From positions 1 through 64,000 of the forward strand of contig CALUQD010000002.1 in NCBI GenBank assembly GCA_944322825.1: a DNA stretch of 64,000 bases. The letters run 5' to 3'. The stretch is from Candidatus Avelusimicrobium pullicaecorum (GTDB lineage Bacteria; Elusimicrobiota; Elusimicrobia; Elusimicrobiales; Elusimicrobiaceae). The notes beneath the pieces were generated by a model, which saw nothing but the letters and a program-made list of their open reading frames with translations, did not search any database and was not told where the DNA came from. Both the position numbers and the translations under genes were made by a program. This document shows, piece after piece, positions 409 to 34,030 of the stretch. Within the stretch, counting starts at the first letter, position 1; each line of letters opens with the position of its first letter.

Positions 409-3400
409 TTACTTCGTTAAGTTAGTGTCGGTACCGCGTTGGGTGGAGCCCTTAAACTGCTGCGTACAAGCATTGGGGCCGTAGCCGTTATCGGGCTTGG
501 CTTCTTTGCCGTTTACGCAGACACCGCCTACATATTTCAACGCATTGGCAACCGGCATATTGCCAGATAACTGGCAGGAGTCAACCAAGTCACTCAATAC
601 ATTTTGGTACGCACTTGTAAACATATGGCGGTTGTAATCGTCAATCGTACCGTTATACTTTTTCTTCAATTCGTCCACATTGTACGAATCCGCCCGCTGG
701 AACCCAACTGCCTGTGCGATAGGATACAACGGATAGGATTGCGCGCTCCACGCGTTTTCCACCCAACCGCCGTTTTGCAGTCTTCTCAAATACGGGTCAC
801 GCCCACTTTGCCCGCTGCTGGTACCCGTAGCCTGCAATATCTGGCTGCTCAAATCCCCGTTTTGGAATTGGCTCCAGTTATAGCGGCCATAATGATACTT
901 GGCATCAGTCGTCGGTTTGGTAACGGTTTTTCCGCCTTCCACCGCCGTCAAGCAACCAAAGAAGCGCTTATCAATAATGGTATTTCCGCTTCCATCCTGC
1001 ACATACAAAGCAGGATAGTGCGAAGAATCCGGCCCGATGTAAGCCGCAAACGCACCTAACATATTTCTCCAAGCCCGGCTATCGCGCATTGCCGCCGGAG
1101 AGCGGTCAAACGAGTTGTGACCGATGGTTTTACCCAGCGCACACACGACGTTCAAAGGCACCTGGGCACTGGGGTTCATCGTGTAATCAATCGTCATCGC
1201 GTCCACTAACTGCGATACGGTTACATCACCCGTATGTTCAAAGCGCTTCAGAGCCGATTTCAACTCGGGCTTTTGGTTGGCCCGTTCAATCACCTGGCTC
1301 ACATACGCCTGCACATTGGCTTGGTCAAACACTTTAGCCGGCACTTTCACTTTTTGGCTGGCCGCATATCCCACGTCCAAACAATCGCTGAAAGCATTGT
1401 CCAAAGAGGTATGCCCGCCTTTGCCAAACACATCCACGCTGGGGAACTGCAATAACCCGTTGCGCTCGGAGGAATAAAGGTCGTTAATACCGCCTTTTCC
1501 GCTCATATAGTCGGCCAAATACAGCGTATCCGGTTTCGGAGCCTCTTTCTTTTGAGGTTGCGGTTCGGGTTCCTTCTTTTGCAAATCCATCGGAATCCCG
1601 AAGGGCGTCGTGCCGTCTTCGTAAACGCACACTACCTGGCTGACAGTAGAACCCGGTTTATCGGCGCCTTCGATAGATTTCACGTTGCCGTCTTTATCTC
1701 GCAAGGTGATATTGCCACGGTTGCAGCCGCCCTGCGTGATGGAACTGCCGTCTATCAACAAGTCGTTGCACTGGCGGATTTCCCACGTCACCACAACGCG
1801 GTTGTGCTTCGCTTTGAGATCTTGGATGATCGGAGCCGTAGCCACCACTTGGTAATCATTGCCTTCTTTGCCGGGCAAGTCCGTGCGTTCCGTACCGAGG
1901 TTGGTGGTTACAAACCCGGCTCCAGTCGCTTCCTGGTTCCAAGAACCTCTATATGGGCGTACATTCTGGTGCGGGATGGGATACCACTGGCCTTTCGAGG
2001 AATCCGTGGACGTCGAAATCGCAACAGGCTGGGAATTATCCTGCCCTTGCACCGTATACGAAATGAAGAACCGGCTCTTCATTGCATTATAGGCGTTCGG
2101 ACCCACCATACCGTTGGCAAAGCTCAAGTGTGCAAACGGCCAGCCGTTGACCTGTTCACCCGCGGTGCTGGAAACATTGGCGTAGTAGTCGCAGCTTACG
2201 CGCACCAACGGATACGCGCAGCGCGCACCGGTAATCCAGCCTTTGCCCTGTTTGCCGCCTTTGGTGGATTTGGACAAGTTTTCTCTCGCCCCCACCGGGA
2301 CGGCATCGCGGATAACGCCGCCTTCTCTGATGACGTTCAAGAAATCATTGTACTTAGGCAGTTGTTGGTCGCGCACAATGGACACAACCGCTTCCGCTTT
2401 ATCTTTTTCTCCTTCCTTGCTGGAAGAATCTTTGATTTTCTTGTTTTTAATAGCAACACTTTCGATAAACAACGGCACGAAATCCGTGCGTTCTTTAATG
2501 TCGGAGAGGTTGCTGTTGTATTGCGTCCCTTCTCCAATATAACCTACCACCAGCATCTTAGGCTGATGTTCCGCAGGAGTGTTATAATAGGTTTCCAACT
2601 CGTCCGTCGGCACGCCAACTACATAGTGCAGCACAGTCCAGCCGCCGCCTTTGGTGCTGGAGAAATCGGCATAATATACGCCGTTGGTTGCAAAGGTATA
2701 GCAGTCGGCCACTTCTCCAAACGCCCCTTTGTTGGCGCCAAACGCTTTGTTGAACCATCTGTCAAACGCCGCGCCCAAGCCTTCGCTCAAGCAGTCCAAA
2801 CGCTGGCCGATGGGCCCCAAGGTAACTTCGTTGGCATTACCGCCGTCCCAGGGATCTTGCACATCTTTCTGAATGCCAAAACCATAAAGTTCTCGGCAAT
2901 TCTTTTTGTTAAATGCTCTTCCTGGATGAGCTTTTTCCCAATCTTCTTTTTCCAGGCCACCACAAGTTGGAGGGTCACCGGCGCCGGCCTTAGCGCCTAA
3001 AATTTTGCCCATACTGCCGTCGTCCTGTCCGGTAACGATACAGTTGAACAAGCCGCCCAGCACATTCTGCCACAGTTTGTCTTTCCACTTAATCCAGTCC
3101 CATCTGCGGTTGAAATCCGCTTCCCATTCCATCTGGGAGCGTCTTTTCATCATATCCCACCACCAGGGTTCTTTGCCGTTGAAAGCAAACGCGCGTTCCA
3201 ATTTGCCGGCACCGCCGCCCGGAGAAAACGAGCCGCTGCCTAATCCGCCAAATTTACCGGGTTCAATGGGTTTAACCTGCGCGTCCATAAGGGCCTGCAT
3301 GGCATTGGCTTTAGACATCGCGTCTTTAGAGCGTCTGGCTTCGGCCGCCGCCCCGCTGCCGAAATACGTCCGGCTGGGTTTGCCTGCCGCCTGCAACGGC

Positions 3401-4092
3401 TGCAAGGAAACCGGCTTCGGGCTGTTGCGCGGGCCTTCGGCCGCTACTTTTTTGGCAGCGGTTTTTAATCCGCCTCCCCACATACCTACACCCAATTTAC
3501 CGCCGGAACGGCTGGTAAGCCCCGCCGAAGACAACGGATTAATTTTCGTTGCCGCACGGCGGAATGCCGCACGCGTAGCCGCGGGAGCGTTTTGCTTGTA
3601 GATATTCGTATTGTTTTCTTCGACGGTGGTATCATTGTATGACGAAGAATCGTCCATACCACTGCGATCGGTATAGATTTGAGAATCGTACGAATCTTCT
3701 TCCGGCTGGGTCGATTTGGATCCGGTGATAATCCAGCTCAGCGGGTCGCGTCCGGAGAACAAAGCCACCTGCCCATCCGGATCCCCGGTAACTGTATCAA
3801 AACCATACCGTTCGGGATCAAAGATAGACTCCTCACTGCCGGGGGTAACCATTACTTCTTCATTTACTTGGCCGCTGTACTTATACAAAAACGGCAGCAG
3901 AAGCAGCGCAATCAAGGCCGCAATGAAGAACGGCGCATCCCGCTTGGTACGCTCAAAGAGCGTCTTTTTGGGCTTGCCGTTACTCCCGATTTTGGAGGAA
4001 ATACGATTAGCGAAAGATTTAGAGGCAATAGGCTTGCTGTTCTTAATCTTATCGCTAAAGGTAAAACTTTCCTTCTTTTTTTCCTCTGGCAT
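409..4092 (-). CDS. Giant membrane-anchored, cysteine-containing surface protein (unknown family)
   Basis: I do not recognise this 1227-residue protein. The N-terminus is lysine-rich and cytoplasmic (1-53), followed by a single membrane segment at about 54-70, so some 1150 residues should lie outside the inner membrane. Residues about 75-300 are low complexity, rich in Gly, Ser, Ala and Arg, with a LGSGSFSPGGGAG stretch near the end. A tryptophan-rich amphipathic segment follows at about 309-349. The rest looks globular and carries around 16 cysteines, consistent with disulfides. The start is supported by AGGAGG six bases upstream. It has its own promoter and about 170 bases of leader, and lies directly downstream of four similarly built anchored proteins. 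A role in the pilus or cell surface is inferred from context only. Confidence 0.9.
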   Translation of the reverse strand: MPEEKKKESFTFSDKIKNSKPIASKSFANRISSKIGSNGKPKKTLFERTKRDAPFFIAALIALLLLPFLYKYSGQVNEEVMVTPGSEESIFDPERYGFDTVTGDPDGQVALFSGRDPLSWIITGSKSTQPEEDSYDSQIYTDRSGMDDSSSYNDTTVEENNTNIYKQNAPAATRAAFRRAATKINPLSSAGLTSRSGGKLGVGMWGGGLKTAAKKVAAEGPRNSPKPVSLQPLQAAGKPSRTYFGSGAAAEARRSKDAMSKANAMQALMDAQVKPIEPGKFGGLGSGSFSPGGGAGKLERAFAFNGKEPWWWDMMKRRSQMEWEADFNRRWDWIKWKDKLWQNVLGGLFNCIVTGQDDGSMGKILGAKAGAGDPPTCGGLEKEDWEKAHPGRAFNKKNCRELYGFGIQKDVQDPWDGGNANEVTLGPIGQRLDCLSEGLGAAFDRWFNKAFGANKGAFGEVADCYTFATNGVYYADFSSTKGGGWTVLHYVVGVPTDELETYYNTPAEHQPKMLVVGYIGEGTQYNSNLSDIKERTDFVPLFIESVAIKNKKIKDSSSKEGEKDKAEAVVSIVRDQQLPKYNDFLNVIREGGVIRDAVPVGARENLSKSTKGGKQGKGWITGARCAYPLVRVSCDYYANVSSTAGEQVNGWPFAHLSFANGMVGPNAYNAMKSRFFISYTVQGQDNSQPVAISTSTDSSKGQWYPIPHQNVRPYRGSWNQEATGAGFVTTNLGTERTDLPGKEGNDYQVVATAPIIQDLKAKHNRVVVTWEIRQCNDLLIDGSSITQGGCNRGNITLRDKDGNVKSIEGADKPGSTVSQVVCVYEDGTTPFGIPMDLQKKEPEPQPQKKEAPKPDTLYLADYMSGKGGINDLYSSERNGLLQFPSVDVFGKGGHTSLDNAFSDCLDVGYAASQKVKVPAKVFDQANVQAYVSQVIERANQKPELKSALKRFEHTGDVTVSQLVDAMTIDYTMNPSAQVPLNVVCALGKTIGHNSFDRSPAAMRDSRAWRNMLGAFAAYIGPDSSHYPALYVQDGSGNTIIDKRFFGCLTAVEGGKTVTKPTTDAKYHYGRYNWSQFQNGDLSSQILQATGTSSGQSGRDPYLRRLQNGGWVENAWSAQSYPLYPIAQAVGFQRADSYNVDELKKKYNGTIDDYNRHMFTSAYQNVLSDLVDSCQLSGNMPVANALKYVGGVCVNGKEAKPDNGYGPNACTQQFKGSTQRGTDTNLTK

Positions 4093-4267
4093 AAATGCCT
4101 CCTATTAAAATAAAACTGCCTGTTAGGGCTTTTTTAGGCCCCGGAGAGATTTTTCCTTGCCGTCAGAAACATCCCCCCGTCATACATTTTCATAATAAAG
4201 AAATTCGTTGTTCGGAGATGGTCCCCCACTCCGTAACAACTTTCTCTATACATACTTCCTTACTTCT

Positions 4268-4295
4268 ATTATACAATTAAATCGGCGTTTTTCAA
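4268..4295 (-). promoter_or_regulatory. Sigma70-type promoter for the 1227-residue gene, with long leader
   Basis: On the minus strand TTGAAA (4295-4290) is 16 bases from TATAAT (4273-4268). Transcription would start near 4261 and leave about 170 untranslated bases (4093-4261) before the start codon. That leader holds a short GGGC/GCCC hairpin around 4125-4145 but no riboswitch class that I recognise. Confidence 0.75.
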
Positions 4296-4303
4296 GGGGC
4301 TTT

Positions 4304-5977
4304 TTAGTACCACTCCGTTGCGCCCCAATCCGTTTCCGGGAAGAAGTCCCCCGCGTTCGGATCCATTGGGTTATTCCCTACTCCGATATTAAAGGTGCCG
4401 CCGACAAGCCTGGAAATACCCGTTTCGGAACAGCCCCCGCCGTAACAGTCGCCTTCGTTATAATCCGCCGCTTTTTTAATGGCAGCCAAACAATCCTGCT
4501 GCGCCTGCGGGTCCGTCAAAGAAGCGCATTTTTGTTTTTCTTCGGTACAATAGTTGGCATATTGGTCGTAACGGCCTTGCAAATTATTGGTGGTGCACGT
4601 GCCTTCCCGCCCTGCTTTTACCGCCACCCCGCAAGAATTTTTTAAATCCGCATAAGCCCGTTTTACCTGCTCGCATTGGTTGCGCAAAACAGCCAGCCGG
4701 TTTGGAAAATCGCCGTTTACGTCGTCGCACGTCCGAGGGAAAGAACCCGACAGGCTGCTAATCCCGCTTTTGGCCGCTTCCAACTGGTTGACCAAGTTTT
4801 CGCCGGAGGTATTTAAAGCGTTGTTGCATTCTTCTTCTTTTTTCAAGCGCAGTTTAATGTTATCCAAATCCCCCACCACGGCATCAGACGTCAGCCCAAT
4901 GCCCGAGGACATAGACGAATCGAACACCTTACGCGGGATTTCCGCCCCGTTAAAGCCAGCCCCCGCCAGGGTTTTTTTAAGCATAATATCCGACACGCGG
5001 GTAGCCGTACGGCTGGTCAGCCAAGCATAATACATATCCCGCTGGGCTTTATAGCGGCCGGCATCGTCCAACAAAGAAAGCGGCGTCATTCCTCCCTGGG
5101 CGTTCAATTCTTTTACAATGCTTTGTAAATCCGTATCGGTTAAAAAGGCTTTGTCCATCATTTGGCCGAACCAGTCTGTGGGAGAAGCCCCGGAAATATG
5201 CGGATTGGCGATTTTTTTAAGGGAATCTACCGAATTGTACCCGTCCTTCGGGTTGCGCGGCAACGCGCCGGATGATTCCGTTCCAAAAAAAACTTCCGAA
5301 GGCATCGCCTCGTTGGCCTGCGTTTTAGCACTGTTGCCCGTGATACGCGCCGCCGGAGACATATCCCCTTCCTGCGTATCCACCGTATAATACGCCCCGG
5401 CCAAAGCGTCCGCGCGTTTGCCTTGCTTGAGCAAAAACGCATTGACGGCTCGCAAATTGAATAAGCTGGAATCTTTGTCTTTTTCCAACCGCTGATGCGC
5501 CGATATGATGCCGCCGTCCTTGCCAAACACGCCGGTTTCTTCGGGGTCGTCCAATTCGCCGTTCATTAATTGGGAATGCTCGTTCCAGGTAAGCAAAGCC
5601 TTTAAAAAGGAAATGGATTGGGTTTCATCGGGGGAATATCCCATCGCCCACGCCAAATTGCGCAAAAGCGGGATTTTGCCCACCGGCACTACGCCGGTGA
5701 TAATACCCAGCAAAAAAAGCAACAATACCGCCGCCCATACTTTTTTAGAACGCATCCAGCGTTTGTCTGTATCCGGCGCGAGGTTCTTTTCCGGCGGCTG
5801 GGCGGACGGAGCAGGACGCGGCTGTTTTTCCGCCGTCCGCGCGGGAACTTGCTGCGAGCGCGGCGGTTGCTGCGGCGTTTTTTCCTGCGGCTGCGGAGCG
5901 GACGCCCGCGGTTTCTGTTGCTCCTGCGGCGGCCGCTGGTTGCCGTCCTGTGTTTTTTTGGATTCGTTCATATTCAT
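4304..5977 (-). CDS. Membrane-anchored protein with Pro/Gln-rich cytoplasmic tail (unknown family)
   Basis: A 557-residue protein of no family known to me. The first 75 or so residues are Pro, Gln and Arg rich and likely disordered in the cytoplasm; one membrane segment lies at about 80-100; the remainder should be extracytoplasmic. The C-terminal 180 residues contain about a dozen cysteines with spacings such as CYGGGC, pointing to a disulfide-stabilised domain. ATG at 5977 is taken as start; GTG at 5980 is in frame and also possible, and there is no strong ribosome binding site because a 28-base palindrome sits directly upstream. The stop lies just before the promoter of the next gene, so it is the last gene of the block begun at 10902. 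Confidence 0.88.
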   Translation of the reverse strand: MNMNESKKTQDGNQRPPQEQQKPRASAPQPQEKTPQQPPRSQQVPARTAEKQPRPAPSAQPPEKNLAPDTDKRWMRSKKVWAAVLLLFLLGIITGVVPVGKIPLLRNLAWAMGYSPDETQSISFLKALLTWNEHSQLMNGELDDPEETGVFGKDGGIISAHQRLEKDKDSSLFNLRAVNAFLLKQGKRADALAGAYYTVDTQEGDMSPAARITGNSAKTQANEAMPSEVFFGTESSGALPRNPKDGYNSVDSLKKIANPHISGASPTDWFGQMMDKAFLTDTDLQSIVKELNAQGGMTPLSLLDDAGRYKAQRDMYYAWLTSRTATRVSDIMLKKTLAGAGFNGAEIPRKVFDSSMSSGIGLTSDAVVGDLDNIKLRLKKEEECNNALNTSGENLVNQLEAAKSGISSLSGSFPRTCDDVNGDFPNRLAVLRNQCEQVKRAYADLKNSCGVAVKAGREGTCTTNNLQGRYDQYANYCTEEKQKCASLTDPQAQQDCLAAIKKAADYNEGDCYGGGCSETGISRLVGGTFNIGVGNNPMDPNAGDFFPETDWGATEWY

Positions 5978-5983
5978 CACGCA

Positions 5984-6011
5984 GGCAGGGAACGCCTAGG
6001 CGTTCCCTGCC
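5984..6011. repeat. Perfect 28-base palindrome between two surface-protein genes
   Basis: The half site GGCAGGGAACGCCT is followed immediately by its exact reverse complement. It fills nearly the whole gap between the stop of the 490-residue gene and the start of the 557-residue gene. It has no T tract on the minus strand, so it is not a typical terminator; in RNA it would form a strong hairpin just upstream of the start codon. Confidence 0.85.
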
Positions 6012-6018
6012 CTAAAAA

Positions 6019-7491
6019 CTATTTATTCAGTTCTTCTTTAACAGCGGACGCAGCCATATCGGTTCCTTTTTGCAAAGCCACGCCGCCAATGGTTTTAGCA
6101 GCTTTCTTTATCACTTGTCTAAATTTGTCTTCAGCAGCCGCTTTGCCGCGGTTTTTAGCCGCTGCAATGCCGGTCAATGTCATTGCGCCAATAGCACCTG
6201 CACCTAAGATGTACGACATCATAGGCATCATCATTCCGTTGTATTTGGCGTTATAGTCAATACCAAAGCCAATGACAGTAGCGGCATAAGCCATTACCAT
6301 GCCCAAGATGGTCCAGCCCCAAAACACCATCGACAAACCAAACAGGCCTGCCTTGCTCCCTTTGGAAATCAAGCTATACGCAATCGGCATTGCCGCCACG
6401 GCCGCCGCCACGAGCGCCAAAACCATCCACATCAAGCGTTTGCGGGCTTTTTCCTGCTTCTCGGCAAAATCATCTTCTTGGTCCGCCCAATCGTCAATTG
6501 CGCGCAGTTTAGCCGCACGGGCGGGTTCAAAATCGGACGACGCTCCGCCGTTATCCGCCACCACACCGCCTTCCACCGCCATACCGCCGGAATTGCGGGT
6601 GCTGGCTAAGAAAGCACGGGAACCTTCGTTGGCGGCGCGGGTACGGTTGCCGGCCGCATCGGCCGAACGTTTGGCAATATCGCGCAAATCGTTTTTCTCG
6701 CGGAACGAACGGGGCCCCCTTGATGTAGTAGCATACCGTCCGCCGGCCATAAAGGTGGAATTGCCCGCGCCAAAGGCTTGTCCGCCCGCCATAGCGGAAA
6801 CCGCGTTGGAACCGCTGGGCATCGCGCCGGAAAAGTGATAGCCTTCCCCGCTTCCCGCCGCACCGCTGGCGCCGCCGGAGGCAGACGCACTGCGCGTACC
6901 GGAGCCGGACGAAGCAATCGGGCCGGACGCAGCATTAAACGCCGAACCGGACGCCCGCGCCATCGAGGCAGACCCCAACGCCGGGGGCTGCGTAGCCCCG
7001 CCTTGGGCCGCCGCGGCCGCCACACGCCCGCCATTTACAGACGGCAAAGAACTAGCCGCGCGGGGAGCTCCCGCCGGGCCCTGCATAACCGTTTCGTTGG
7101 CGCCCATTCCCAAACCTTCGGTCTGGGCCGACCCCGCGGCCGCGCCGGGGTTCCAATTGGCGATTTGGTTTTCGGTCTGGTCCACCAACTGGCTGGAAAA
7201 ACCGTTTTGCGCCTCCAGGGCCGCGCGTTCTTCGGGCGTGGCCACCTGGTTTAAAGAATCTTTGACGTTAATAGACGTCAGCAATCCGTCTTTTTGCTGG
7301 AGCCCTTCCTGCACGGAAGAACGGGTAATCCCCGACAAGGTGCGGATAGGCGCCTCTTTGCTGGCGTAGGTACTGTCCGTTTCATACGCGCCGTATACGG
7401 CCAGCATCCCCACCCCGGCAATCGCCGCCAGCTGGGGTACGCCCATCACAATTTTCCCTGACGCATTTTTTAATAATTCCAATATCTTCAT
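6019..7491 (-). CDS. Gly/Ala/Ser-rich membrane protein, paralogue of the 524-residue neighbour
   Basis: A 490-residue protein of unknown family. One membrane segment near the N-terminus (about 13-35), then about 230 residues of Gly, Ala, Ser and Asn rich low complexity, then a charged motif KRSADAAGNRTRAANEG, and three membrane segments at about 350-440. The same order and the same motif occur in the gene at 7790-9364, so the two are paralogues. AGGAG lies eight bases before the ATG, over the stop codon of the 90-residue gene, suggesting coupled translation. The layout resembles neither TadB/C nor any transporter I know. It could be a structural or scaffold component of an envelope complex; that is inference from context. 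Confidence 0.9.
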   Translation of the reverse strand: MKILELLKNASGKIVMGVPQLAAIAGVGMLAVYGAYETDSTYASKEAPIRTLSGITRSSVQEGLQQKDGLLTSINVKDSLNQVATPEERAALEAQNGFSSQLVDQTENQIANWNPGAAAGSAQTEGLGMGANETVMQGPAGAPRAASSLPSVNGGRVAAAAAQGGATQPPALGSASMARASGSAFNAASGPIASSGSGTRSASASGGASGAAGSGEGYHFSGAMPSGSNAVSAMAGGQAFGAGNSTFMAGGRYATTSRGPRSFREKNDLRDIAKRSADAAGNRTRAANEGSRAFLASTRNSGGMAVEGGVVADNGGASSDFEPARAAKLRAIDDWADQEDDFAEKQEKARKRLMWMVLALVAAAVAAMPIAYSLISKGSKAGLFGLSMVFWGWTILGMVMAYAATVIGFGIDYNAKYNGMMMPMMSYILGAGAIGAMTLTGIAAAKNRGKAAAEDKFRQVIKKAAKTIGGVALQKGTDMAASAVKEELNK

Positions 7492-7501
7492 ACGTTATCT
7501 C

Positions 7502-7774
7502 CTACCGCCCCAGTGTATCCACCACATTTTGCACTCCGGGCTGAGCGGTTTGGTTCCCCATCGCGGCCCGCCGGTACATTGCTTCCCGGCGCTGCATTTC
7601 TTCTTTGCGCTGGTTTTCCAGCTGCAGTTCGGTCAGCCGCTCTTGCAGGCGGTTTCCTTCCTGGAACAGCACCAATCCCCAAGTAAGCCACAATAACACC
7701 AAGAAAATGGCTATTATGCGGTAAATGCAATTTTTTTTGCTCCAAGGCTCAATAATCAAATTACCAATTTGCAT
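7502..7774 (-). CDS. Small single-pass membrane protein with coiled coil
   Basis: Ninety residues: a short N-terminal stretch, one strong hydrophobic segment (about 18-37), then a Glu, Gln and Arg rich helix (about 40-70) that looks like a short coiled coil, and a polar tail. AGAGGGGG upstream of the ATG at 7774 supports the start. It lies between the two paralogous 490- and 524-residue genes with gaps of about 10-15 bases, so it is co-transcribed and may act as a small assembly partner of them. No family is recognised. The overlapping alternative frame (7488-7745) is discarded because it lacks a ribosome binding site and has shadow-like composition. Confidence 0.8.
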   Translation of the reverse strand: MQIGNLIIEPWSKKNCIYRIIAIFLVLLWLTWGLVLFQEGNRLQERLTELQLENQRKEEMQRREAMYRRAAMGNQTAQPGVQNVVDTLGR

Positions 7775-7789
7775 ACCGGGCCCCCTCTA

Positions 7790-9364
7790 TCAGGTTAAAG
7801 AATTTTTGGTTACGTCCTGCATAATATCCATCGTATCGGCTCCGTCCATACCGGCCTGGCCGATAGCGCCCGCCGTCGGGGCGGCAGTAGAGCCTTCCTT
7901 GGCAATTAAGCCCAACTTTTGGCCCACTTTCGTATACAGTTGTTTAAAAGCTTTAGCCCATACAAACGAAGCCCACACCCCGCCGGTTAAGATAGGCGTA
8001 ATAATCATAATGGCCGTACTCATTCCGGACCCGCCCCAACGGTTGGCAAAATTGGCCGCTTTCACAAAGCCGACCACACAAACCGCCGTGGCCGCCGCCG
8101 CCAAGGCAAGTGCAATAAATAACCCGACAGGAACGCCCAAAATATTGATATTTTTGACCAACGGAATAGCAATCATCGCGGCCAAAGCCACGGCCGTAGC
8201 GGACCACATCCATTTAATCATTGCGTTGCGGTCTTCTTGGCGTTGGATCGCGTCCATATTCGAGTCGGTTGACCAGCCTTGGATCGCGCGCAGCTGGGAA
8301 TCGTATTCTCCGTTAAAATCCGCCGAGCTTTGGCCCTGGCCGGTAGTGACGTTGGCTCCGCTGACCCGCAAGCCGCCGGAAATTTTCGTACTGGCCAAGA
8401 AAGCGCGGGCGCCTTCGTTGGCGGCACGGTTGCGGTTGCCGGCCGCGTCCGCCGAGCGTTTGCGGATAAATTCCAAATCTTTCCCTTCTCGAGCGTTGCG
8501 AAAACCGGCAGCGGTGGCATCCCAATCGGGGTCTAAACCTTGACTGACGCCAAAATTCGCCTGCGCACGCAAGCGCTGGCCTTCCTGCCCGGAAGCCGCC
8601 AGCTGTTCTTGGAATTGCTGCATCACCCGGGCCGCTTGCTCGGGCGTACCGGCGGAAGCGGCGCTCCCGCCGCCTTTTTGGCTGTCCTGCACCACAAAAG
8701 AAGAATTAAAAGCCGTACCGCCACCGCCGCTTAACCCGCGGGTAGCGGCCGAGGAACCCCAATCACGCGAGGCGCTGGCCAAGGCCGGAGCGGCGCCGGC
8801 TGGCTGTCCGCCGGCCGCGGCAGTTCCGTTCTGCCCCTGCCCTGAGCCTTGAGCCTGGGCTTGCGCGCGGGTAATGGCATCCGTCACGCCCGCAATGCTT
8901 TGCTGGGCAAACGCCATCGGATTATTTTTCAAAATTTCTTCATTGGCGAAGTTGCCGCCCATTCCCAACCCTTCGCTTCCGCCCATTTGATAGGCGCCCG
9001 CCAACGCCGGGCTGGAAGGAACGTCATCCACGGGGATGGTGAAAGATTCCGCCGCTTCCTCGGCTTGTTTTTGGGCCAAAGCCTGTTTTTCGGTCATTTC
9101 AATGGCTTTGGAAGGAGTAGCCATAAATGCGGATTGCAACTCACCGTTTTCGTCATAATTTCTCCCGGTTGCACCCGCCACATAAACGACCTCGCCCCGG
9201 TTGCTTTGCCCGCCCAGGTTAAAGGCCGTATTGTCGGTTGGAGTATCTAAAAATTGCCACGCGGCAACACCTGCCACGCCGACTACGGCCGAAAGCCCCA
9301 CCGCCTGCGCGGCAGAGAGAGCGATTTTTCCGCCCCGATCCGTCAGCCATTTAAAGATGTTCAT
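7790..9364 (-). CDS. Gly/Ala/Ser-rich membrane protein, paralogue of the 490-residue neighbour
   Basis: 524 residues, unknown family. It starts with MNIFKWLTDRGGK and one hydrophobic segment (about 15-38), continues with a Gln, Gly and Ala rich linker, the charged motif KRSADAAGNRNRAANEG followed by RAFLAST, and ends with three membrane segments (about 385-490) and a short polar tail. Length, order of parts and motif match the 490-residue protein, so a duplication is clear. AGGAGG precedes the ATG by six bases. It is the second gene after the promoter at 11024. Export of the linker region across the inner membrane is predicted from the topology; the function is unknown. Confidence 0.9.
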   Translation of the reverse strand: MNIFKWLTDRGGKIALSAAQAVGLSAVVGVAGVAAWQFLDTPTDNTAFNLGGQSNRGEVVYVAGATGRNYDENGELQSAFMATPSKAIEMTEKQALAQKQAEEAAESFTIPVDDVPSSPALAGAYQMGGSEGLGMGGNFANEEILKNNPMAFAQQSIAGVTDAITRAQAQAQGSGQGQNGTAAAGGQPAGAAPALASASRDWGSSAATRGLSGGGGTAFNSSFVVQDSQKGGGSAASAGTPEQAARVMQQFQEQLAASGQEGQRLRAQANFGVSQGLDPDWDATAAGFRNAREGKDLEFIRKRSADAAGNRNRAANEGARAFLASTKISGGLRVSGANVTTGQGQSSADFNGEYDSQLRAIQGWSTDSNMDAIQRQEDRNAMIKWMWSATAVALAAMIAIPLVKNINILGVPVGLFIALALAAAATAVCVVGFVKAANFANRWGGSGMSTAIMIITPILTGGVWASFVWAKAFKQLYTKVGQKLGLIAKEGSTAAPTAGAIGQAGMDGADTMDIMQDVTKNSLT

Positions 9365-9387
9365 AAATTCCTCCTAATGCTTCAAAT

Positions 9388-10902
9388 CTATTTGCAAGAG
9401 CAGGTTTCAGTAGTAGAATAGCCACCCGGTTCAGTTTTCGTTACACAGGTCCACGTTTGTCCTGCAGGGCAATCACGGACCTTTCCTCCACTGCTGGAAT
9501 TACTGCCGCCGGGGGGCGCGTCCGTCTTATTTATCGCTTTGCTAATCACATTTGAATTACCCTGTAAACGGCCATAAGCAACCGTGACGGCATTTTCCCG
9601 TTTTTCATTAGCCGCTATATAGGTTGCACTGCTCGTGTCATTTTTATAATACTTTTTCATTCCCGTGTTTCTTGTTTCAGCATCGGTTTTCCCATTAAAA
9701 AAATCTTTTTGGCATTTTTTGCAGTCATTTCCATTCACCCACAGGGCACCCACCGACTGCGTCCCCTGCGTCTCTTTTAAGTTATCCCAATTAATTGCGT
9801 TTCCGTTGCGATCGTTCGGATGAGCCGCTTTCAAAGCGGAAAACTCCTCGGGGGTAAGTTCACTTAAGGATTTACCGAACAGTTGGTCGCTCGAGGACCG
9901 CAACGAATCATTAAAAGCAGAATTGCCTGACATATTGGCCATCCAAACATCCATTTGTTGGTTCAAATAAGCGCTCCCGGCCTTCAACCCGATATCTACT
10001 AATCCGCTCATCAACTGTTCGCCCAGTTTTTCCCAAAAACTTTGCCCCGCTTTTTCAAATTCTTCTTTTTTGTCTTTGGCATCTTTGGCGGCCTCGGCTA
10101 CTTTGTCATCCAAATTGCTTAAATCCGCCGAAGATACCGGCGCATTCGGGTCGATAGCCAATCCGCCGGTTTTGCTCAAATCTACGCCTTTATCGGTGAA
10201 GGCTTCACTGCCTTGCACATAGCCCCCCATCAAGGCTTTTTTAGCGTTGGCGCTTTTGGAATCCCGGAAGCCCGCCGCTGCGCGGCTGCCCTGGGAGAAT
10301 TGGGACAACGCCCGCCGGGCATCCTGGTTTTTAAATTGGACGGGCGTTTCGGAACCTTTTTCCTGGCTCTTATAGGGCGAAAAATCCCCGCCGGGGGATC
10401 CCCACGTGGCGTTCACGCCGCTGCCGCTTGCCGTGCCCATACTGGCGCTGCCCAGCTTGCCCACTTGCGTAGGCGCCGCCGTGCGTCCGCCGCCGCGATA
10501 CCCGCCATAGCCGCTATATCCGCCGGACGCGCCGGCCGATTCCCCCGCCAACGAGGCCGTGTCCTCCTCGCCGGCTTCTTCCGCCGCCGCGGCATCCTCT
10601 TCCTGGCGTTCTTTTTTCTCCTCGGCCGAATAGAGCATTGTCGAATTATTGCCCTGCATATCCGGGTATTTGGAAGCCAACAGGTATTCTTCCGCTTCGT
10701 CATTTAAAAACGGCATCTGGGCCAAATCGTACCCGCGGGTATTGTAGTCTTCAAACGAAGAATCATCCGCATTTCCCAAAAAAGAAGCAAGCGTAAGCAA
10801 CGCCACAAAACAGACCAATACAATCGCTCCTATCGTATAGGCTTGCTTTCGGTCCATTTTGTTAATCTTTTGGAATACATTTCCCGGTTTTAATTTAAAC
10901 AT
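9388..10902 (-). CDS. Membrane-anchored Gly/Ser-rich protein with cysteine-rich end (unknown family)
   Basis: 504 residues. A basic 22-residue N-terminus precedes one membrane segment (about 24-42). Then come an acidic stretch with a Glu/Ala run, a Gly/Tyr/Arg-rich segment (YSGYGGYRGGGR), a linker containing KLGSASMGTASGSGVNA, a helical part, and a C-terminal tail with paired cysteines ending CSCK. The linker string closely matches LGSASMARASGSAFNA in the 490-residue protein. GAGGGG before the ATG supports the start. It is the first gene behind a consensus promoter and leads the block 9388, 7790, 7502, 6019, 4304. Function unknown; extracytoplasmic location inferred. Confidence 0.9.
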   Translation of the reverse strand: MFKLKPGNVFQKINKMDRKQAYTIGAIVLVCFVALLTLASFLGNADDSSFEDYNTRGYDLAQMPFLNDEAEEYLLASKYPDMQGNNSTMLYSAEEKKERQEEDAAAAEEAGEEDTASLAGESAGASGGYSGYGGYRGGGRTAAPTQVGKLGSASMGTASGSGVNATWGSPGGDFSPYKSQEKGSETPVQFKNQDARRALSQFSQGSRAAAGFRDSKSANAKKALMGGYVQGSEAFTDKGVDLSKTGGLAIDPNAPVSSADLSNLDDKVAEAAKDAKDKKEEFEKAGQSFWEKLGEQLMSGLVDIGLKAGSAYLNQQMDVWMANMSGNSAFNDSLRSSSDQLFGKSLSELTPEEFSALKAAHPNDRNGNAINWDNLKETQGTQSVGALWVNGNDCKKCQKDFFNGKTDAETRNTGMKKYYKNDTSSATYIAANEKRENAVTVAYGRLQGNSNVISKAINKTDAPPGGSNSSSGGKVRDCPAGQTWTCVTKTEPGGYSTTETCSCK

Positions 10903-11038: not shown

Positions 11039-11584
11039 CTAGCGTCCTTCCGGCCGCTGGTACGGGGCCGGGCGTTCGTTATGCCCCGCATACTTGATTA
11101 CTTTTACCTCGCCGCCTGTTTCACACAAAAAGGCATATCCCTTCCGGCATTTAGCGTCCTGTTCACACACCCGGTCTTTGTTGTAATCGCACAGAAACCG
11201 AATCCGCGGCGGACGCGTGTAGGCCGTCAGCACGACTTTCACCCAGTTGCCGGCCGGGTCGATATCTATCTTCAGCTTATTCAGGTTTAAAAACTTGCGC
11301 ATATCCGGGTTATCAAAGCCCAGGTAATTTTCCACTTTGCGCTGGATATCTTTCTTTAAAAAACGCCGGTCCCAGGTATTGGCGTAATAATCCGTTTCGT
11401 GCGACTGCAGCTGATAGCGCCGCGCCGCGTAATAACCGGCAATTTCCATTTTTTGGTTTAAAATAAGCAATCCGAAAATTTTGATGATGAACAAAATAAA
11501 TATCACAAACAGCGGAAACAACAGCACGACTTCCGTCGTCGCCTGTCCTTTTTTAGCACGCAGAGAAAAAAGTTTGTTTGTCAT
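11039..11584 (-). CDS. tadE: TadE-like pseudopilin
   Basis: 181 residues with the TadE hallmark: a short basic leader ending KKG, then QATTEVVLLFPLFVIF, where Glu at position +5 after Gly is the conserved residue recognised in Flp/TadE prepilins, followed by one membrane helix. The remainder is a charged extracytoplasmic domain with a few cysteines. TadE proteins are minor pseudopilins of the Tad pilus, cleaved by a TadV-type peptidase. Its ATG overlaps the stop of the upstream TadG-like gene (TAATG), so the two are translationally coupled. It is the last gene of the sensor and pilin block before the promoter at 11024. Confidence 0.85.
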   Translation of the reverse strand: MTNKLFSLRAKKGQATTEVVLLFPLFVIFILFIIKIFGLLILNQKMEIAGYYAARRYQLQSHETDYYANTWDRRFLKKDIQRKVENYLGFDNPDMRKFLNLNKLKIDIDPAGNWVKVVLTAYTRPPRIRFLCDYNKDRVCEQDAKCRKGYAFLCETGGEVKVIKYAGHNERPAPYQRPEGR

Positions 11585-14730: not shown

Positions 14731-16603
14731 AGTTGGTATCTCCTGGTTTTCTGTAAATTTTTAAATAAATCTGAAAGCACGTTCCTTTACCGGGTTTACT
14801 TTGAATAAACAGTTTCCCTTTGTGGCGGCTGATGGCTTTGCCCACCACCGCCAATCCCAGCCCCGTGCCGCGGGCTTTGGTGGTAAAAAAGGGCGCAAAC
14901 ATTTTGCGGCGCACTTCATCGGTAATGCCCGGGCCTTGGTCCGCAATATAGATACACACCAAGCGCTTCCCCACTTTGGTTCCTACCGTCAGCGTACCGC
15001 CGTTGGGCATAGCTTCAATCGCGTTAGACACCACATTGCGGATAGCCTGTTTGATTTCTTCCGCATCCACTTTGATGCGTACGCTTTCCGCGTCCAGTTC
15101 TTCTTTAAGCGTAATGCCGGGAATGAACGGATACGAAAGCAGCAATTCCCGCAAATAGCTGTTTAAATCCACCGTAGTCAAAATCAAATCCCGCGTGCGG
15201 GCATACCCCAGCACCTCGCTGATGATGCTGTTGGCCTGTTTGATTTCCGCATCAATAATGCCAAATTGCTTGGTGAGTTTCGGGTCCGGCGACGTAACCA
15301 ACATTTTGATAAGGCGCGTAGCGTTACTGATAACCGCCAGCGGGTTGCGGATTTCGTGGCTGATGATGGACGCCATCTGCCCGATAGCCGCCAACCGTTC
15401 CGCCTTTACCAATTCGCTGCTGGCGTTTTTCAGTTCGCGGGTACGTTCTTCCACCCGCTTTTCCAACGCCTGGTTTACCTGCGCCAACTCCGCCTGCGCG
15501 CGGATGAGCTCCTGCCGGCGCATATGCAGCGCCGTGGACATATCCACAAAGGCAGACGCCAGCTCGCCGATTTCGTTATTGGGGATTTCCACATCATTGT
15601 GATGAACGACGAAATCATCATTTTCCCGTTGCAAAATGGCCGCTTTTCGGAGGCGCTCCAACGGGCGGGTGATGGGTTTAATGACCCAATAACTTACCAC
15701 CAGCACAAACGCCAGCATCACCAACAACAGCACCAATACATCCCAAAAGGAATGGAATGTGCTTTCCACAAACAGCTGCGCCGCCACATTGGCCGGCTGG
15801 TCCACATACACCTTCCAGCCCGGCAAAGACAGGTTAGCCACCGCCACCAGCACCCGCTCCCCGTTAGGCAATTCCACTTCGCCGCTGCGGCTGTACCCCA
15901 ACTGGCTATTAATGGCCAGTACCTTCTGCGTCATTTCCGGCTGCGGCTCTTGGGCCAAACCGTCCGGCGCCCCATTGTAGGAAATAATTTCCCCCTCATC
16001 CGTGGCGATAATGGCGTTCATATCCAGCGGATACGCCTGCGAAAGGGATTCCCCCATCTCCTGCAAATTCATTTCCGCCACCAGAATGCCGGTTACCTGT
16101 ACTTCGTCCAAGTGCTGGCGTACCGGAAATGCCATCAGTACAAACAGTCCTCCCGGCATTTGGTATACGTCGCTGATATATTCTTCGCCTTTTTCCACAC
16201 AAGCGCGCAGAATGTCGGGCGCAATTTTTTTGTAATTAATGGACGCCGCCGCCTGCCCCGCCGAAAGCAATTGCTGGCCTTGGGGGCTCAATACCGCCAA
16301 ATAAAAAATAGAAGGATTCCGCGCCAGCAGGTAGTGTAAATCTTGCTGGTTGACAAAATCGTGCCCGCCGAAATCGGTATGCAAGTCCACAAAGATAGAA
16401 AACATTTGGGCCTTGCGGCTGATGTGCGCCCGCGCTACCGAAGCCAGCCGGCTGGCTACGGTTTGCTGCTTTTGCAAAATTTCATTTTTTAGCACGCGGC
16501 TGTCCACGCCCATTACGTGGTAACCGATAATCAGCACCGGCACGATGGAAATTAAAATCAGCACCAAAACCGCTTTGGCAAATAAGCCGTTTAACCGTTT
16601 CAT
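14714..16603 (-). CDS. Membrane sensor histidine kinase (dCache-HAMP)
   Basis: 629 residues: first membrane helix about 9-29, an extracytoplasmic region of about 255 residues with the length and pattern of a double Cache ligand domain, second helix about 287-308, HAMP about 308-360, a coiled coil, HisKA with His416 in IISHEIRNPL, and an ATPase domain ending with GTGLGLAVVGK. It should sense a small external ligand and autophosphorylate. It overlaps the receiver-kinase gene and is the first gene after the terminator at 16685-16720, so it starts a separate unit. The ligand cannot be told from sequence. Confidence 0.93.
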   Translation of the reverse strand: MKRLNGLFAKAVLVLILISIVPVLIIGYHVMGVDSRVLKNEILQKQQTVASRLASVARAHISRKAQMFSIFVDLHTDFGGHDFVNQQDLHYLLARNPSIFYLAVLSPQGQQLLSAGQAAASINYKKIAPDILRACVEKGEEYISDVYQMPGGLFVLMAFPVRQHLDEVQVTGILVAEMNLQEMGESLSQAYPLDMNAIIATDEGEIISYNGAPDGLAQEPQPEMTQKVLAINSQLGYSRSGEVELPNGERVLVAVANLSLPGWKVYVDQPANVAAQLFVESTFHSFWDVLVLLLVMLAFVLVVSYWVIKPITRPLERLRKAAILQRENDDFVVHHNDVEIPNNEIGELASAFVDMSTALHMRRQELIRAQAELAQVNQALEKRVEERTRELKNASSELVKAERLAAIGQMASIISHEIRNPLAVISNATRLIKMLVTSPDPKLTKQFGIIDAEIKQANSIISEVLGYARTRDLILTTVDLNSYLRELLLSYPFIPGITLKEELDAESVRIKVDAEEIKQAIRNVVSNAIEAMPNGGTLTVGTKVGKRLVCIYIADQGPGITDEVRRKMFAPFFTTKARGTGLGLAVVGKAISRHKGKLFIQSKPGKGTCFQIYLKIYRKPGDTNYGESS

Positions 16604-16647
16604 AAACTGTACCCGCCTTGCTGGGTATTTCCAGGAACTTCCAGGTC

Positions 16648-16668
16648 ATGGGCCGTATGCCGGCCCAT
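16648..16668. repeat. Intergenic hairpin upstream of the sensor kinase gene
   Basis: ATGGGCCG and CGGCCCAT form a perfect 8-base-pair stem with a 5-base loop. A direct repeat TTCCAGG-AAC-TTCCAGG lies beside it at about 16629-16645. Either element could be a regulator site for the kinase operon or an RNA structure in its leader. Confidence 0.6.
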
Positions 16669-16684
16669 CATCCAGACGCTTCTG

Positions 16685-16720
16685 AAAACGGGGGCCGGGA
16701 TACGCCCCAGCCCCCGTTTT
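16685..16720 (-). terminator. Intrinsic terminator after the DsbA-like gene
   Basis: AAAACGGGGGC pairs with GCCCCCGTTTT around a 14-base loop; on the minus strand the stem ends in TTTT. It lies 18 bases after the stop codon at 16739 and ends the main Tad operon. Confidence 0.8.
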
Positions 16721-16738
16721 GGCTTAAAAAAGGAATTG

Positions 16739-17689
16739 TTAGCAGCTGCCAACCGGGGCCGCCGCAGCGGAATTATTCGCCGCGTTCGGGTTCAAGAACG
16801 AAAACCCTTCCAGCTGCGAAGCCGTCCCAAAATCCAGCTGCACCTTACCTTCCCACAGGAAGGTGGGCGAAGCGCTTACGCCGTATTCCTGGCCATATTT
16901 GGCTTCTTCTTTGAGAAGTTCAACGCCTTCCTTATCAAACTTCTTCATAATTTTGTTTACATTGATGCCCGCTTCTTCCATCGCTTTATCCCAGCGGCTG
17001 GAGCGATAGTCTTTGTTGCGGATTTCCAAATACTTCCAGAATTTTTTAGGATAGTACTTGGCAATTAACAGCTGGCGGATGTTTTCTTCCCATTCGGCGG
17101 AACCGTGCAAGCTGGAAAAACCATTCTTTTCATCGTAGCTCACCACATAGCGGATTTTGATTTCTTTATCCGCCGGCAGTTTGCCGTCTTTCTGCGCCTG
17201 CAGCACCAAGCCCTCGGCCATCACGCCATAGGGGCACTGGGACATTACAAAAATTTCCATTACGCCGGGCTTAGCCGTTTTGTTGGTAAATACGCCCGTG
17301 CGGGTTTGATGCGGCAAAATGATAAAATCTTCATTTTCCTGGGCATAGCCGTACTGCAAATGCTTTTCCAATTTGGCGCGGATGTCATCCGTCTTTTTAA
17401 TTAGATAAAGCGGCAGGAAGCTATAATCCAAGTTGGCCAATTTCGGATCGGCCGCGGCGTCTTTATGGGACACTTTGGTTACAGTCGGTTCCGCATTTAA
17501 AAACTGGGAAATGCCCGCCGTCAACAGCGGATCTTCCTTACCGGCATCATATTCATCGGATTCCACTACGATAAATTCCGCTTTCGTCTTGGCCGGAGCC
17601 TTGGCTTTGGCGGCTTTTTTAGCCGGAGCCGCGGCAAAAGCAAACCCCGCCACGGCGCAAATGAGCAAAATACTTACTAGTTTTTTCAT
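16739..17689 (-). CDS. Exported DsbA-fold thioredoxin-like protein
   Basis: 316 residues. A signal peptide (1-20) is followed by a Lys/Ala-rich linker, an N-terminal region of about 120 residues without clear family, and a thioredoxin-fold part from about 140 with EIFVMSQCPYGVMAE. The active site is CPYG, with one cysteine where DsbA has CPHC, and a cis-proline loop follows at SASPTF. One extra cysteine is the last residue. Proteins with MSQCPYG occur in the GILT/DsbA-like group. It may reduce, isomerise or shuttle disulfides in the cysteine-rich exported proteins of this cluster; this is inferred. It is the last gene of the operon and ends before a terminator. Confidence 0.8.
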   Translation of the reverse strand: MKKLVSILLICAVAGFAFAAAPAKKAAKAKAPAKTKAEFIVVESDEYDAGKEDPLLTAGISQFLNAEPTVTKVSHKDAAADPKLANLDYSFLPLYLIKKTDDIRAKLEKHLQYGYAQENEDFIILPHQTRTGVFTNKTAKPGVMEIFVMSQCPYGVMAEGLVLQAQKDGKLPADKEIKIRYVVSYDEKNGFSSLHGSAEWEENIRQLLIAKYYPKKFWKYLEIRNKDYRSSRWDKAMEEAGINVNKIMKKFDKEGVELLKEEAKYGQEYGVSASPTFLWEGKVQLDFGTASQLEGFSFLNPNAANNSAAAAPVGSC

Positions 17690-25390: not shown

Positions 25391-26137
25391 TTATTCCACA
25401 ATTTCAACCGTAATAAACAGGAATAAAGAACGCTGTTCTTCCGTCACGTCTTTGTTTTTAAACAACAAGCCAATCAGCGGAATGCGTCCCAAGAAAGGAA
25501 CCCGGTCTTCAGACACGTTGCGCGAGCTGCTCTTTAACCCGCCGATAACCAACGTTTCGCCGCTGTTAAGCTCCACGTGGGTTTCCACGTCGCGGTTGGT
25601 GAAAGAAGGCGCCGTGGCCGTACCAATCACCACCGTTCTGGAATAGTCCACCGTAGAAACCGACAGCTGCACCTGCAAATCGATGATGTTATTGCGTTCG
25701 GGAATAATCGTAGGCAATACGTTAAGCAAAATACCGTATTCTTCCAGCTGGGAACCAACCCCCTGGTTGTTGACAATCGGTATCGGCACCTTGCCGCCGA
25801 CTGTAATCTTGGCGCTGTTGCCGGAAGAAGTAACAATCTTCGGGTTGGATAATACTTGCGCCCGGCCTTCCGTTTCCATCAAGCGAAGACGCGTGGTTAC
25901 GGCCGTTTTGCGTTCAAACTCGCCCAAGGACAATATGCCGGGGATAGAGGCTTCCTCAAAATCAAACAGCTGGTTCCACGAAAACCCTTTTACGCTCTGC
26001 ATGGTCCCGCTGATTTCCACCACGTCGGCGCTGACGGCCACCAAGCGCGTTTTTTTGGCAAAAGCGCACGACGGCATCAGCACGCTGAAAAGCAATACCG
26101 CGAGGGATACATTAGCTATAAACTTTTTATTCGTCAT
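25391..26137 (-). CDS. cpaC: Short CpaC/RcpA-type secretin
   Basis: 248 residues, about half the usual CpaC length. After a signal peptide (1-27) and about 60 residues comes a full secretin C-terminal domain: RAQVLSNPKIVTSSGNSAKI, then GKVPIPIV, a YGILLNVLPTI strand, VELNSGETLVIGGL, and the closing VPFLGRIPLIGLLF with FLFITVEIVE. The N0/BON-type periplasmic domains of CpaC are missing. It would form the outer-membrane gate for the pilus; the missing domains may be replaced by the exported N-terminal part of TadB or by CpaB, which is an inference. It lies between CpaB and the motor gene as in other tad operons. Confidence 0.9.
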   Translation of the reverse strand: MTNKKFIANVSLAVLLFSVLMPSCAFAKKTRLVAVSADVVEISGTMQSVKGFSWNQLFDFEEASIPGILSLGEFERKTAVTTRLRLMETEGRAQVLSNPKIVTSSGNSAKITVGGKVPIPIVNNQGVGSQLEEYGILLNVLPTIIPERNNIIDLQVQLSVSTVDYSRTVVIGTATAPSFTNRDVETHVELNSGETLVIGGLKSSSRNVSEDRVPFLGRIPLIGLLFKNKDVTEEQRSLFLFITVEIVE

Positions 26138-26151
26138 ATTCGTCCTGTACG

Positions 26152-26907
26152 TTATTGAAATAATTTTTCAAAAGTAGCGATTTCCATCAAGTAGTTGGTC
26201 ACATCGCCAGGCGTACGCAAGATGACGGAAATATCACCTTCCGCTTGGGCTAACGCCAGATACTGCGCATCCCGCGGCGAAAGCGCCAAAGACAAGGCGG
26301 AACTGTCGGAATAAGCCGCCGCGTCTTCGTCTTTATCTTTCATTGCGTTGGCGGATTTGGCATCCAAGCCCTGGCCCAAATCGGCCCCTACGCCCAACAC
26401 TTTTACGTTCTGTAAGAGCGTTACCGTCACTTTCTGGCGGGAACCGCTTTTCATCACCGCTTCAAACGTCAGCAAAATATCCACGTTGTCATCGGGTTTA
26501 ATCATACTGGCAGTCGCCAGGGGAATGTTATTGATGATAAAACCCCTCATCTGAACCGGAATTTTGCTTGATAAGCCGGCCTCGGGAGACAGCGAGGTCA
26601 CGGCATACTTGGAAATCTGGTTCCCTTTCGGAATTTGGATACGCGCCACGGCATTTTCGATGGCTTTCAAGTCGGCATCCGTCGTATACGTAAAAGCGTC
26701 CTTCTGCAAGTAAGCAGCCGGCACCGGCACGGTTTTGATGTAATCGCGCTTGATGACTTCGCGTTCTTTAATGTCGCGCACCGGCACAAACACCTGTTTG
26801 ATGTTTTTAGACGCGTTAAGTTTTTTGGACGCGTTATTGACAATAATTCCATATATGATGGCCGCCAACAAGGCAATCACCAACGGAAGAAAGTATCCTT
26901 TTTTCAT
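26152..26907 (-). CDS. cpaB: CpaB/RcpC periplasmic pilus assembly protein
   Basis: 251 residues. One N-terminal helix (about 5-22), then an SAF-type domain with QVFVPVRDIKEREVIKRD followed by beta-rich sequence including GKNQ-like IPKGNQISKYAV, and a C-terminal RcpC-like region with PDDNVDILLTFE. CpaB/RcpC proteins connect the secretin to the inner-membrane platform and may bind peptidoglycan. The gene directly precedes the secretin gene (14-base gap), the standard order. Confidence 0.9.
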   Translation of the reverse strand: MKKGYFLPLVIALLAAIIYGIIVNNASKKLNASKNIKQVFVPVRDIKEREVIKRDYIKTVPVPAAYLQKDAFTYTTDADLKAIENAVARIQIPKGNQISKYAVTSLSPEAGLSSKIPVQMRGFIINNIPLATASMIKPDDNVDILLTFEAVMKSGSRQKVTVTLLQNVKVLGVGADLGQGLDAKSANAMKDKDEDAAAYSDSSALSLALSPRDAQYLALAQAEGDISVILRTPGDVTNYLMEIATFEKLFQ

Positions 26908-28863: not shown

Positions 28864-28878
28864 AAATTTCGTTTTCTG

Positions 28879-28967
28879 CCGGACTTATCCGGGCTTTTAG
28901 TTAAGTTCCGGCCCCACGGGCCCCTGCAACAACTACAACGCCCTTGGGGGGCTAAGCCCCCCTTGGG
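28879..28967 (-). repeat. Strong hairpins between the giant surface gene and the PorV-family gene
   Basis: GGGGGGC and GCCCCCC pair around a three-base loop (28946-28962), with CCC/GGG flanks; a second stem CCGGA/TCCGG lies at 28879-28892. No T tract follows on the minus strand, so they look like message-stabilising or partial-termination structures that could set the ratio between the giant protein and the downstream pilus genes. Confidence 0.65.
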
Positions 28968-28968
28968 T

Positions 28969-33894: not shown

Positions 33895-34030
33895 TGTGCA
33901 AGTATCCATTTTGGGGACCAATTCCCTTCTAAAAATTAAGTTTGTACAAATCTTTTGCGCTCCCAAAAAAATGCGCGCAAGTAGGCGGCTGCTCATATAA
34001 TATAGACAGACGCCGACATAATACTCTTAA

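What the first reader, a model, noticed from the sequence alone, without database searches (positions are those of the whole stretch)
409..10902. Block of six unrecognised membrane-anchored proteins beside a Tad pilus locus
Five consecutive genes (504, 524, 90, 490, 557 residues) and a promoter-separated 1227-residue one share a plan: a membrane helix near the N-terminus and, in the long ones, Gly/Ser/Ala-rich linkers, with cysteine-rich exported ends in three of them. None matches a family known to me. They follow pilins, TadG/TadE-like proteins and a two-component system. They could build an undescribed envelope machine or a pilus-linked surface structure. The sequence shows topology and composition; the joint function is inference.
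Basis: partly seen in the sequence, partly recalled or inferred. Interest (0 to 1): 0.82.

Follow-up and report, generated by a model that had tools for sequence, protein, structure and literature searches.

The report
Tad-linked inner-membrane module of Elusimicrobia
Next to the genes for a bacterial adhesion pilus lies a set of related membrane proteins, not matching any family in the databases searched here, that is kept throughout one class of Elusimicrobiota and is probably an extra scaffold of that pilus machine crossing the cell envelope.

Summary
In detail: six genes (A 504, B 524, C 90, D 490, E 557, F 1227 aa) follow tadG-tadE on the minus strand, and none matches a Pfam or NCBIfam family. 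The genes are not lineage orphans. A, B/D, E and F have profile-level counterparts in the same order in another order of the class and, away from tad, in a sister family. They arose largely by duplication: B and D are full-length paralogs, A and E are related to them, F more weakly. A strong TadB match occurs in 86 of 199 genomes; F's N-terminus is in 81 of those and in none of the other 113. Linkage to tad is ancestral-looking but lost in some genomes; E. minutum keeps all parts in separate loci. The Tad secretin is short here. F's C-terminal head is swapped between lineages: OmpA-like in Elusimicrobium; in this genus two Ig-like domains plus a confidently predicted domain with no structural match found. 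A near-invariant hairpin leader precedes F. Best reading: an undescribed Tad accessory module, a trans-periplasmic scaffold or anchor. Function and physical contact are inferred.

The parts
9388..10902 (-). Gene A (504 aa): N-in helix, conserved RGYDLAxMPFxNDEAExYLLASKYPDM block, Gly/Ser linker, helical SRAAAG..NAK.A motif, variable Cys-containing C-terminus
   Evidence: profile match to the f2/f7 counterpart prob 96.8
7790..9364 (-). Gene B (524 aa): N-terminal helix, GLGMG, KRSADAAGN..RAANEGARAFLAS motif, 3-4 C-terminal helices; paralog of D
   Evidence: hhalign B-D prob 100, E 6e-49 over 435 columns
7502..7774 (-). Gene C (90 aa): single helix plus charged coiled-coil-like tail; small counterparts at the same place in relatives
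   Evidence: E. minutum counterpart L141:11210-11458
6019..7491 (-). Gene D (490 aa): paralog of B; 3-4 C-terminal helices
   Evidence: match to f2/f7 BD1 prob 94.6 over 373 columns
4304..5977 (-). Gene E (557 aa): Pro-rich cytoplasmic tail, one helix, VPVGKIPxLRNLAxAMGY block, 10 C-terminal Cys
   Evidence: match to f2/f7 E prob 95.6
4207..4240 (-). Near-invariant hairpin in the F leader (GUUGUUACGGAGUGG-GGGA-CCAUCUCCGAACAAC)
   Evidence: found once per genome, before F, in 11 of 41 genomes searched; 23 distinct copies aligned; z -4.7
4268..4295 (-). Sigma-70-like promoter TTGAAA-16-TATAAT between E and F
   Evidence: conserved in the 17 same-genus leaders compared
409..4092 (-). Gene F (1227 aa): conserved cytoplasmic tail and helix (1-130), linker to about 345, two Ig-like domains (454-628, 629-829), C-terminal domain 850-1227 with no structural match found
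11039..11584 (-). TadE-like minor pilin directly before A
   Evidence: PF07811
11584..12702 (-). TadG/TadE-like protein (372 aa)
   Evidence: weak PF07811/PF13400; syntenic class-wide
16739..17689 (-). DsbA-like exported thioredoxin-fold protein of the tad locus
   Evidence: PF01323 E 0.0015, under the curated cut-off; conserved in position
25391..26137 (-). Short secretin RcpA (248 aa): only the secretin domain matches Pfam
   Evidence: PF00263 at 87-248, no other Pfam match; 248-259 aa also in E. minutum, f2 and f7

Best explanation
A-F are an accessory module of the Tad pilus machine of class Elusimicrobia. Shown: they form a conserved gene set, kept with Tad and built largely by duplication of one inner-membrane protein plan (cytoplasmic tail, membrane helix, flexible Gly/Ser/Ala periplasmic linker, a short conserved helical motif, then a membrane bundle in B/D or a Cys-rich exported end in A, E and F). 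Inferred: B, D and C form a membrane scaffold around the TadB-TadC platform; A, E and F reach from it across the periplasm through their linkers and fix the machine to cell wall or outer envelope with exchangeable C-terminal heads. This would make up for a Tad secretin that appears to lack the usual periplasmic N-terminal domain, and would take the place of anchors such as the OmpA-like CpaD of Caulobacter. F has its own promoter and a hairpin leader, so its amount can be set apart from A-E. The DsbA-like protein would form the disulfides in the exported ends.
For: Order TadG-TadE-A..F in 15 of 17 same-genus loci. Counterparts of A, B/D, E, F in the same order downstream of tadE in another order of the class (G165, G151) and in G135; profile matches A 96.8, D 94.6, E 95.6, F 98.3, all above composition-preserving shuffles. 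F in 81 of 86 genomes with strong TadB and 0 of 113 others. In f2, where the block is away from tad, a paralog of its first gene still sits behind tadE (prob 95.3). E. minutum keeps A, B/D-like, C-like, E and F although scattered. Secretin with no N-terminal domain match in Pfam; canonical CpaC has an N-terminal beta-sandwich, CpaD is an OmpA-like anchor and RcpC contacts the secretin N-domain (PMC13170226, PMC12307814). F heads of E. minutum and G007 match OmpA weakly (E 0.004; for E. minutum also 1.8e-5 with a YiaD-type NCBIfam model).
Against: No interaction, localisation or mutant data. Linkage to tad is absent in f2, E. minutum, G042, G097, G013 and G019, so co-occurrence could reflect shared ancestry alone. 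OmpA matches are below curated cut-offs and are absent in this genus. That the secretin lacks an N-domain rests on missing Pfam matches. RcpC, the known Tad alignment ring, is present, so a further periplasmic conduit is not strictly needed.
Confidence: 0.5

Rival explanations
1. The module is an envelope machine of its own (for example a cell-wall or surface-protein scaffold) that is inherited with Tad in this class but does not physically belong to the pilus machine.
For: Intact block on a locus without Tad in family f2, beside dnaX/recR-like genes; split loci in E. minutum and g2 genomes; separate promoter for F.
Against: Same position behind tadE in two orders of the class; no genome with F but without strong TadB; an A-family member stays behind tadE in f2.
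Confidence: 0.27
2. F, and perhaps A and E, are displayed or secreted through the Tad apparatus as adhesins or effectors, with B-D as their export platform; fast-changing heads reflect different partners on the outside.
For: F head changes between lineages and diverges several times faster than its N-terminus; Ig-like domains; Cys-rich ends; Tad tips with variable domains are known in Myxococcus (PMC12075869).
Against: N-terminal anchor with a conserved cytoplasmic tail, no TadE-type pilin match, no release site seen; purifying selection throughout F (dN/dS at most about 0.6 per segment).
Confidence: 0.15
3. Fast-evolving low-complexity membrane proteins with no common task; conserved only because they sit in a long operon.
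For: Much of the length is Gly/Ser/Ala-rich, and similarity between A, B/D, E and F is detectable only with profiles.
Against: Gene set kept where the operon is broken; F N-terminus recognised across the class at E 1e-12 or better in nearly all genomes that have it; profile scores well above shuffles.
Confidence: 0.05

Closest known systems
Tad (Flp) pilus machine of Caulobacter / Pseudomonas / Aggregatibacter
   Same: TadA-like ATPase, TadB, TadC, RcpC/CpaB, secretin, TadE/TadG-like proteins and Flp-like pilins are all in the window.
   Different: TadA is fused to a MinD-like domain, the secretin is 248 aa with no N-terminal domain match, and A-F have no counterpart among the components described in the passages read.
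CpaD (OmpA-like secretin/peptidoglycan anchor of Caulobacter Tad)
   Same: F heads in E. minutum and G007 match OmpA-type models weakly.
   Different: CpaD is an outer-membrane lipoprotein of 225 aa (PMC13170226); F is inner-membrane anchored and over 1200 aa, and in this genus has no OmpA match.
RcpC/CpaB alignment complex
   Same: Single N-terminal helix with a periplasmic part, encoded in the same locus.
   Different: A separate rcpC gene is present (26152-26907, PF16976); A-F have no RcpC match.
Kil pilus with exchangeable TadEFG-type tips (Myxococcus, PMC12075869)
   Same: Tad system with large, lineage-variable heads.
   Different: Kil tips are minor pilins; A-F lack any TadE-type pilin match.

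Membership tests
Tad pilus locus (the window locus as a whole) | TadA-type T2SSE ATPase, two T2SSF platform proteins, secretin, RcpC and TadE | tested here: met
   PF00437 E 6e-62, PF00482 twice, PF00263 E 3e-42, PF16976 E 7e-17, PF07811
Tad pilus locus (the window locus as a whole) | Secretin with a periplasmic N-terminal domain below the secretin domain | tested here: inconclusive
   RcpA is 248 aa; only PF00263 at 87-248 matches Pfam at E 0.01; no structure was predicted
TadE/TadF/TadG minor pilins (for A-F) | TadE/Tad Pfam domain at the N-terminus | tested here: not met
   No PF07811 or PF13400 match for A-F at E up to 1
CpaD/OmpA-like anchors (for F) | OmpA-like peptidoglycan-binding domain | tested here: inconclusive
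   Window F none; E. minutum and G007 homologs E 0.004, below the cut-off; E. minutum 1.8e-5 in NCBIfam, also below the cut-off
RcpC/CpaB (for A-F) | PF16976 domain | tested here: not met
   No match for A-F; a separate rcpC is present
Any described family (A-F) | Match above a curated cut-off in Pfam or NCBIfam | tested here: not met
Ig-like beta-sandwich proteins (F 454-829) | Two Ig/FnIII-type domains | tested here: inconclusive
   VIA Z up to 7.2, Foldseek best E 0.027: a common fold, not membership
Part of the assembled Tad machine (for A-F) | Physical contact with Tad components | not testable with these tools
   needs co-purification or cryo-ET

The most novel reading that the evidence does not exclude
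Class Elusimicrobia builds a separate kind of Tad machine: a duplicated family of inner-membrane proteins replaces the secretin's periplasmic part and the usual anchors, carrying lineage-swapped heads, one of which is a new protein fold.
Probability: 0.25. Interest if true: 0.82.

Novelty: new variant of a known kind. Interest (0 to 1): 0.62.

Why it matters
Recent structural work describes Tad pili as a fairly complete, conserved set of parts. Here an additional set of four to five large proteins has stayed with Tad through much of a bacterial class without entering any family library searched here. If it belongs to the machine, it shows that Tad pili can be built with a different periplasmic section, and it gives testable roles to unassigned genes in Elusimicrobium minutum, which can be cultured, and in gut Elusimicrobiaceae. 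F's C-terminal domain is a candidate new fold, and the F leader hairpin a candidate new regulatory RNA or operator.

Tried and rejected
Pfam and NCBIfam scans of A-F: no match over any cut-off; weak hits (Promethin, HlyE, T4SS_pilin, SLATT, FliL) mostly follow membrane helices and were discarded. Profiles of F 296-1227 and E against PDB sequences: nothing below E 0.3. F's C-terminal domain in Foldseek PDB: best E 0.5, probability 0.01; VIA-align: no Z of 2 or more among 351 chains; viral library best E 0.73. A missing match does not prove a new fold. Pfam scan of 38 members of that domain: only single scattered hits. Diversifying selection on F's head: rejected, dN/dS below 1. Motif-only comparison of E and F with B/D: weak, and for F not above shuffles, so F's kinship rests on the A-F comparison and the f2/f7 profiles. 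Rfam search of the F leader: nothing at E up to 5; a CsrA site was considered and dropped because GGA is lost from the loop in some copies. Sigma-54 sites before F: none. Literature: no paper found on these genes; only the presence of Tad systems in Elusimicrobia is noted (PMC6668835). Distribution outside the phylum could not be searched.

Full report
What is there. The six ORFs are at the stated places on the minus strand. A, E and F carry Cys-rich exported ends; B and D have, besides the N-terminal helix, three to four helices near the C-terminus. None matches Pfam or NCBIfam above a cut-off. The neighbourhood is a Tad locus: two Flp-like pilins, TadE, RcpC, a short secretin, a MinD-TadA fusion, TadB, TadC, a TPR protein, a HAMP protein, a DsbA-like protein, two histidine kinases, a response regulator, TadG-like and TadE.

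Distribution. With window F as query, 49 of 199 phylum genomes match, among them 37 of 38 of the own genus. The exception, G143, has its tad contig broken inside tadG. In the own genus TadG-TadE-A-B-C-D-E-F is found in 15 of 17 loci with enough upstream sequence (C in two of them by position only) and a variant order A-B-D-C-E-F in four more. In one exception (L055) the large FlgD-type gene and the PorV-like gene, which precede the pilus genes in the window, follow F instead, so the block appears to lie on the other side of tad; G019 has block and tad about 210 kb apart.

Class-wide conservation. Reading the tad loci of relatives showed the same gene order from tadC to tadE in most of them, followed in another order of the class (family f7) and in G135 by a chain of anchored Gly/Ser-rich proteins ending in an E-like and an F-like protein. 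In family f2 the chain is complete but on another locus. Profile comparison supports these as counterparts: A 96.8, D 94.6, E 95.6, F 98.3 percent probability, each at about twice the best shuffled score or more. A profile of F's first 130 residues finds it in 81 of 199 genomes, all in families f1, f2, f7 and f8. Those families are the ones with a strong TadB match (300 bits or more in 86 genomes, counted by me): 81 of 86 against 0 of 113. Related genomes are not independent, so this count shows shared inheritance, not contact. In f2 an A-type protein still sits behind tadE and is a full-length relative of the first gene of the distant block (prob 95.3). E. minutum (G034, identified by its 1,643,562-bp contig, own knowledge) keeps A, a B/D-like and a C-like gene together, with E and F elsewhere and tad at 1.30 Mb; the B/D-like gene there was assigned by position and topology, since the B/D profile did not reach it.

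One family, several members. B and D are paralogs over 435 columns (E 6e-49). A matches D (95.3) and F's N-terminal part (86.3), with shuffled controls at most 17.5. In f2/f7, A matches B/D (93.8) and B/D matches E (96.9). F's link to the others is the weakest (61 in f2/f7). Shared elements are a Leu-Ser-Ala-Ser-rich stretch and a short helical motif (KRSADAAGN..RAANEGARAFLAS in B and D).

F's heads. F's N-terminal part is conserved (dN 0.02-0.13 for residues 1-130 in full-length pairs) while the rest diverges faster (dN up to 0.66) under purifying selection. In this genus AlphaFold2 gives two Ig-like domains and a C-terminal domain of 378 residues with mean pLDDT 93.9 and pTM 0.94. That domain has no match in Foldseek or VIA-align, which makes it a candidate new fold, not a proven one. 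In E. minutum and G007 the head matches OmpA-type models weakly. In f2 and f7 the heads are different again.

F's leader. Between E and F lie a sigma-70-like promoter and a near-invariant hairpin (23 distinct copies; one pair varies between G-U, G-C and A-U; z -4.7). In 41 genomes searched it occurs in 11 of the genus, once each, and in none of the family f2 genomes. No Rfam family matches.

How it may work. Canonical Tad machines use a secretin with an N-terminal periplasmic domain, an RcpC ring that contacts it, and in Caulobacter an OmpA-like anchor CpaD (PMC12307814, PMC13170226). The secretin here is 248 aa with only the secretin domain recognised, and is 248-259 aa in E. minutum, f2 and f7. 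The simplest reading is that the module supplies extra periplasmic scaffolding and anchoring. This step is inference. Rivals are an independent envelope machine co-inherited with Tad, and display of F through Tad.

Verdict. A real, class-wide and apparently undescribed module, most likely a Tad accessory. It is a new variant of a known kind of machine with new protein families; function is untested.

Noticed in passing
window 4207-4295 (minus strand): Promoter plus near-invariant hairpin (GUUGUUACGGAGUGG-loop-CCAUCUCCGAACAAC, U-rich tail) before F; single copy per genome where found, no Rfam match. Candidate regulatory RNA, attenuator or operator.
   Followed up: partly
window 25391-26137; also in L143, L144 and L124:3861-4640: Tad secretin RcpA is only 248-259 aa in all four class members looked at, with only the secretin domain recognised in the window copy.
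   Followed up: partly
window 23070-25385: TadA ATPase carries an N-terminal CbiA/MinD-like domain, so TadZ and TadA look fused in one 771-aa protein.
   Followed up: no
L082, L080, L084: gene directly after tadE: An FtsH-like AAA/M41 protease follows tadE, ahead of the A-type gene where one is present, in f7 and some f2 genomes.
   Followed up: partly
L074:3559-4808: Four tandem copies of the small membrane protein (s89 type) in the tad locus of G129; one copy in most other tad loci.
   Followed up: no
window 27892-33996: PorV/UPF0164-like protein and a 1675-aa FlgD-Ig/CHU_C-type protein upstream of the Flp-like pilins; similar-looking genes flank the tad genes in E. minutum.
   Followed up: no
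L079 and L081, gene after the A-type gene (reverse-complement coordinates 15025-16158 and 15716-16837): PDZ/S41-protease-like lipoprotein follows the A-type gene at the tad locus of family f2; family assigned by eye only.
   Followed up: no
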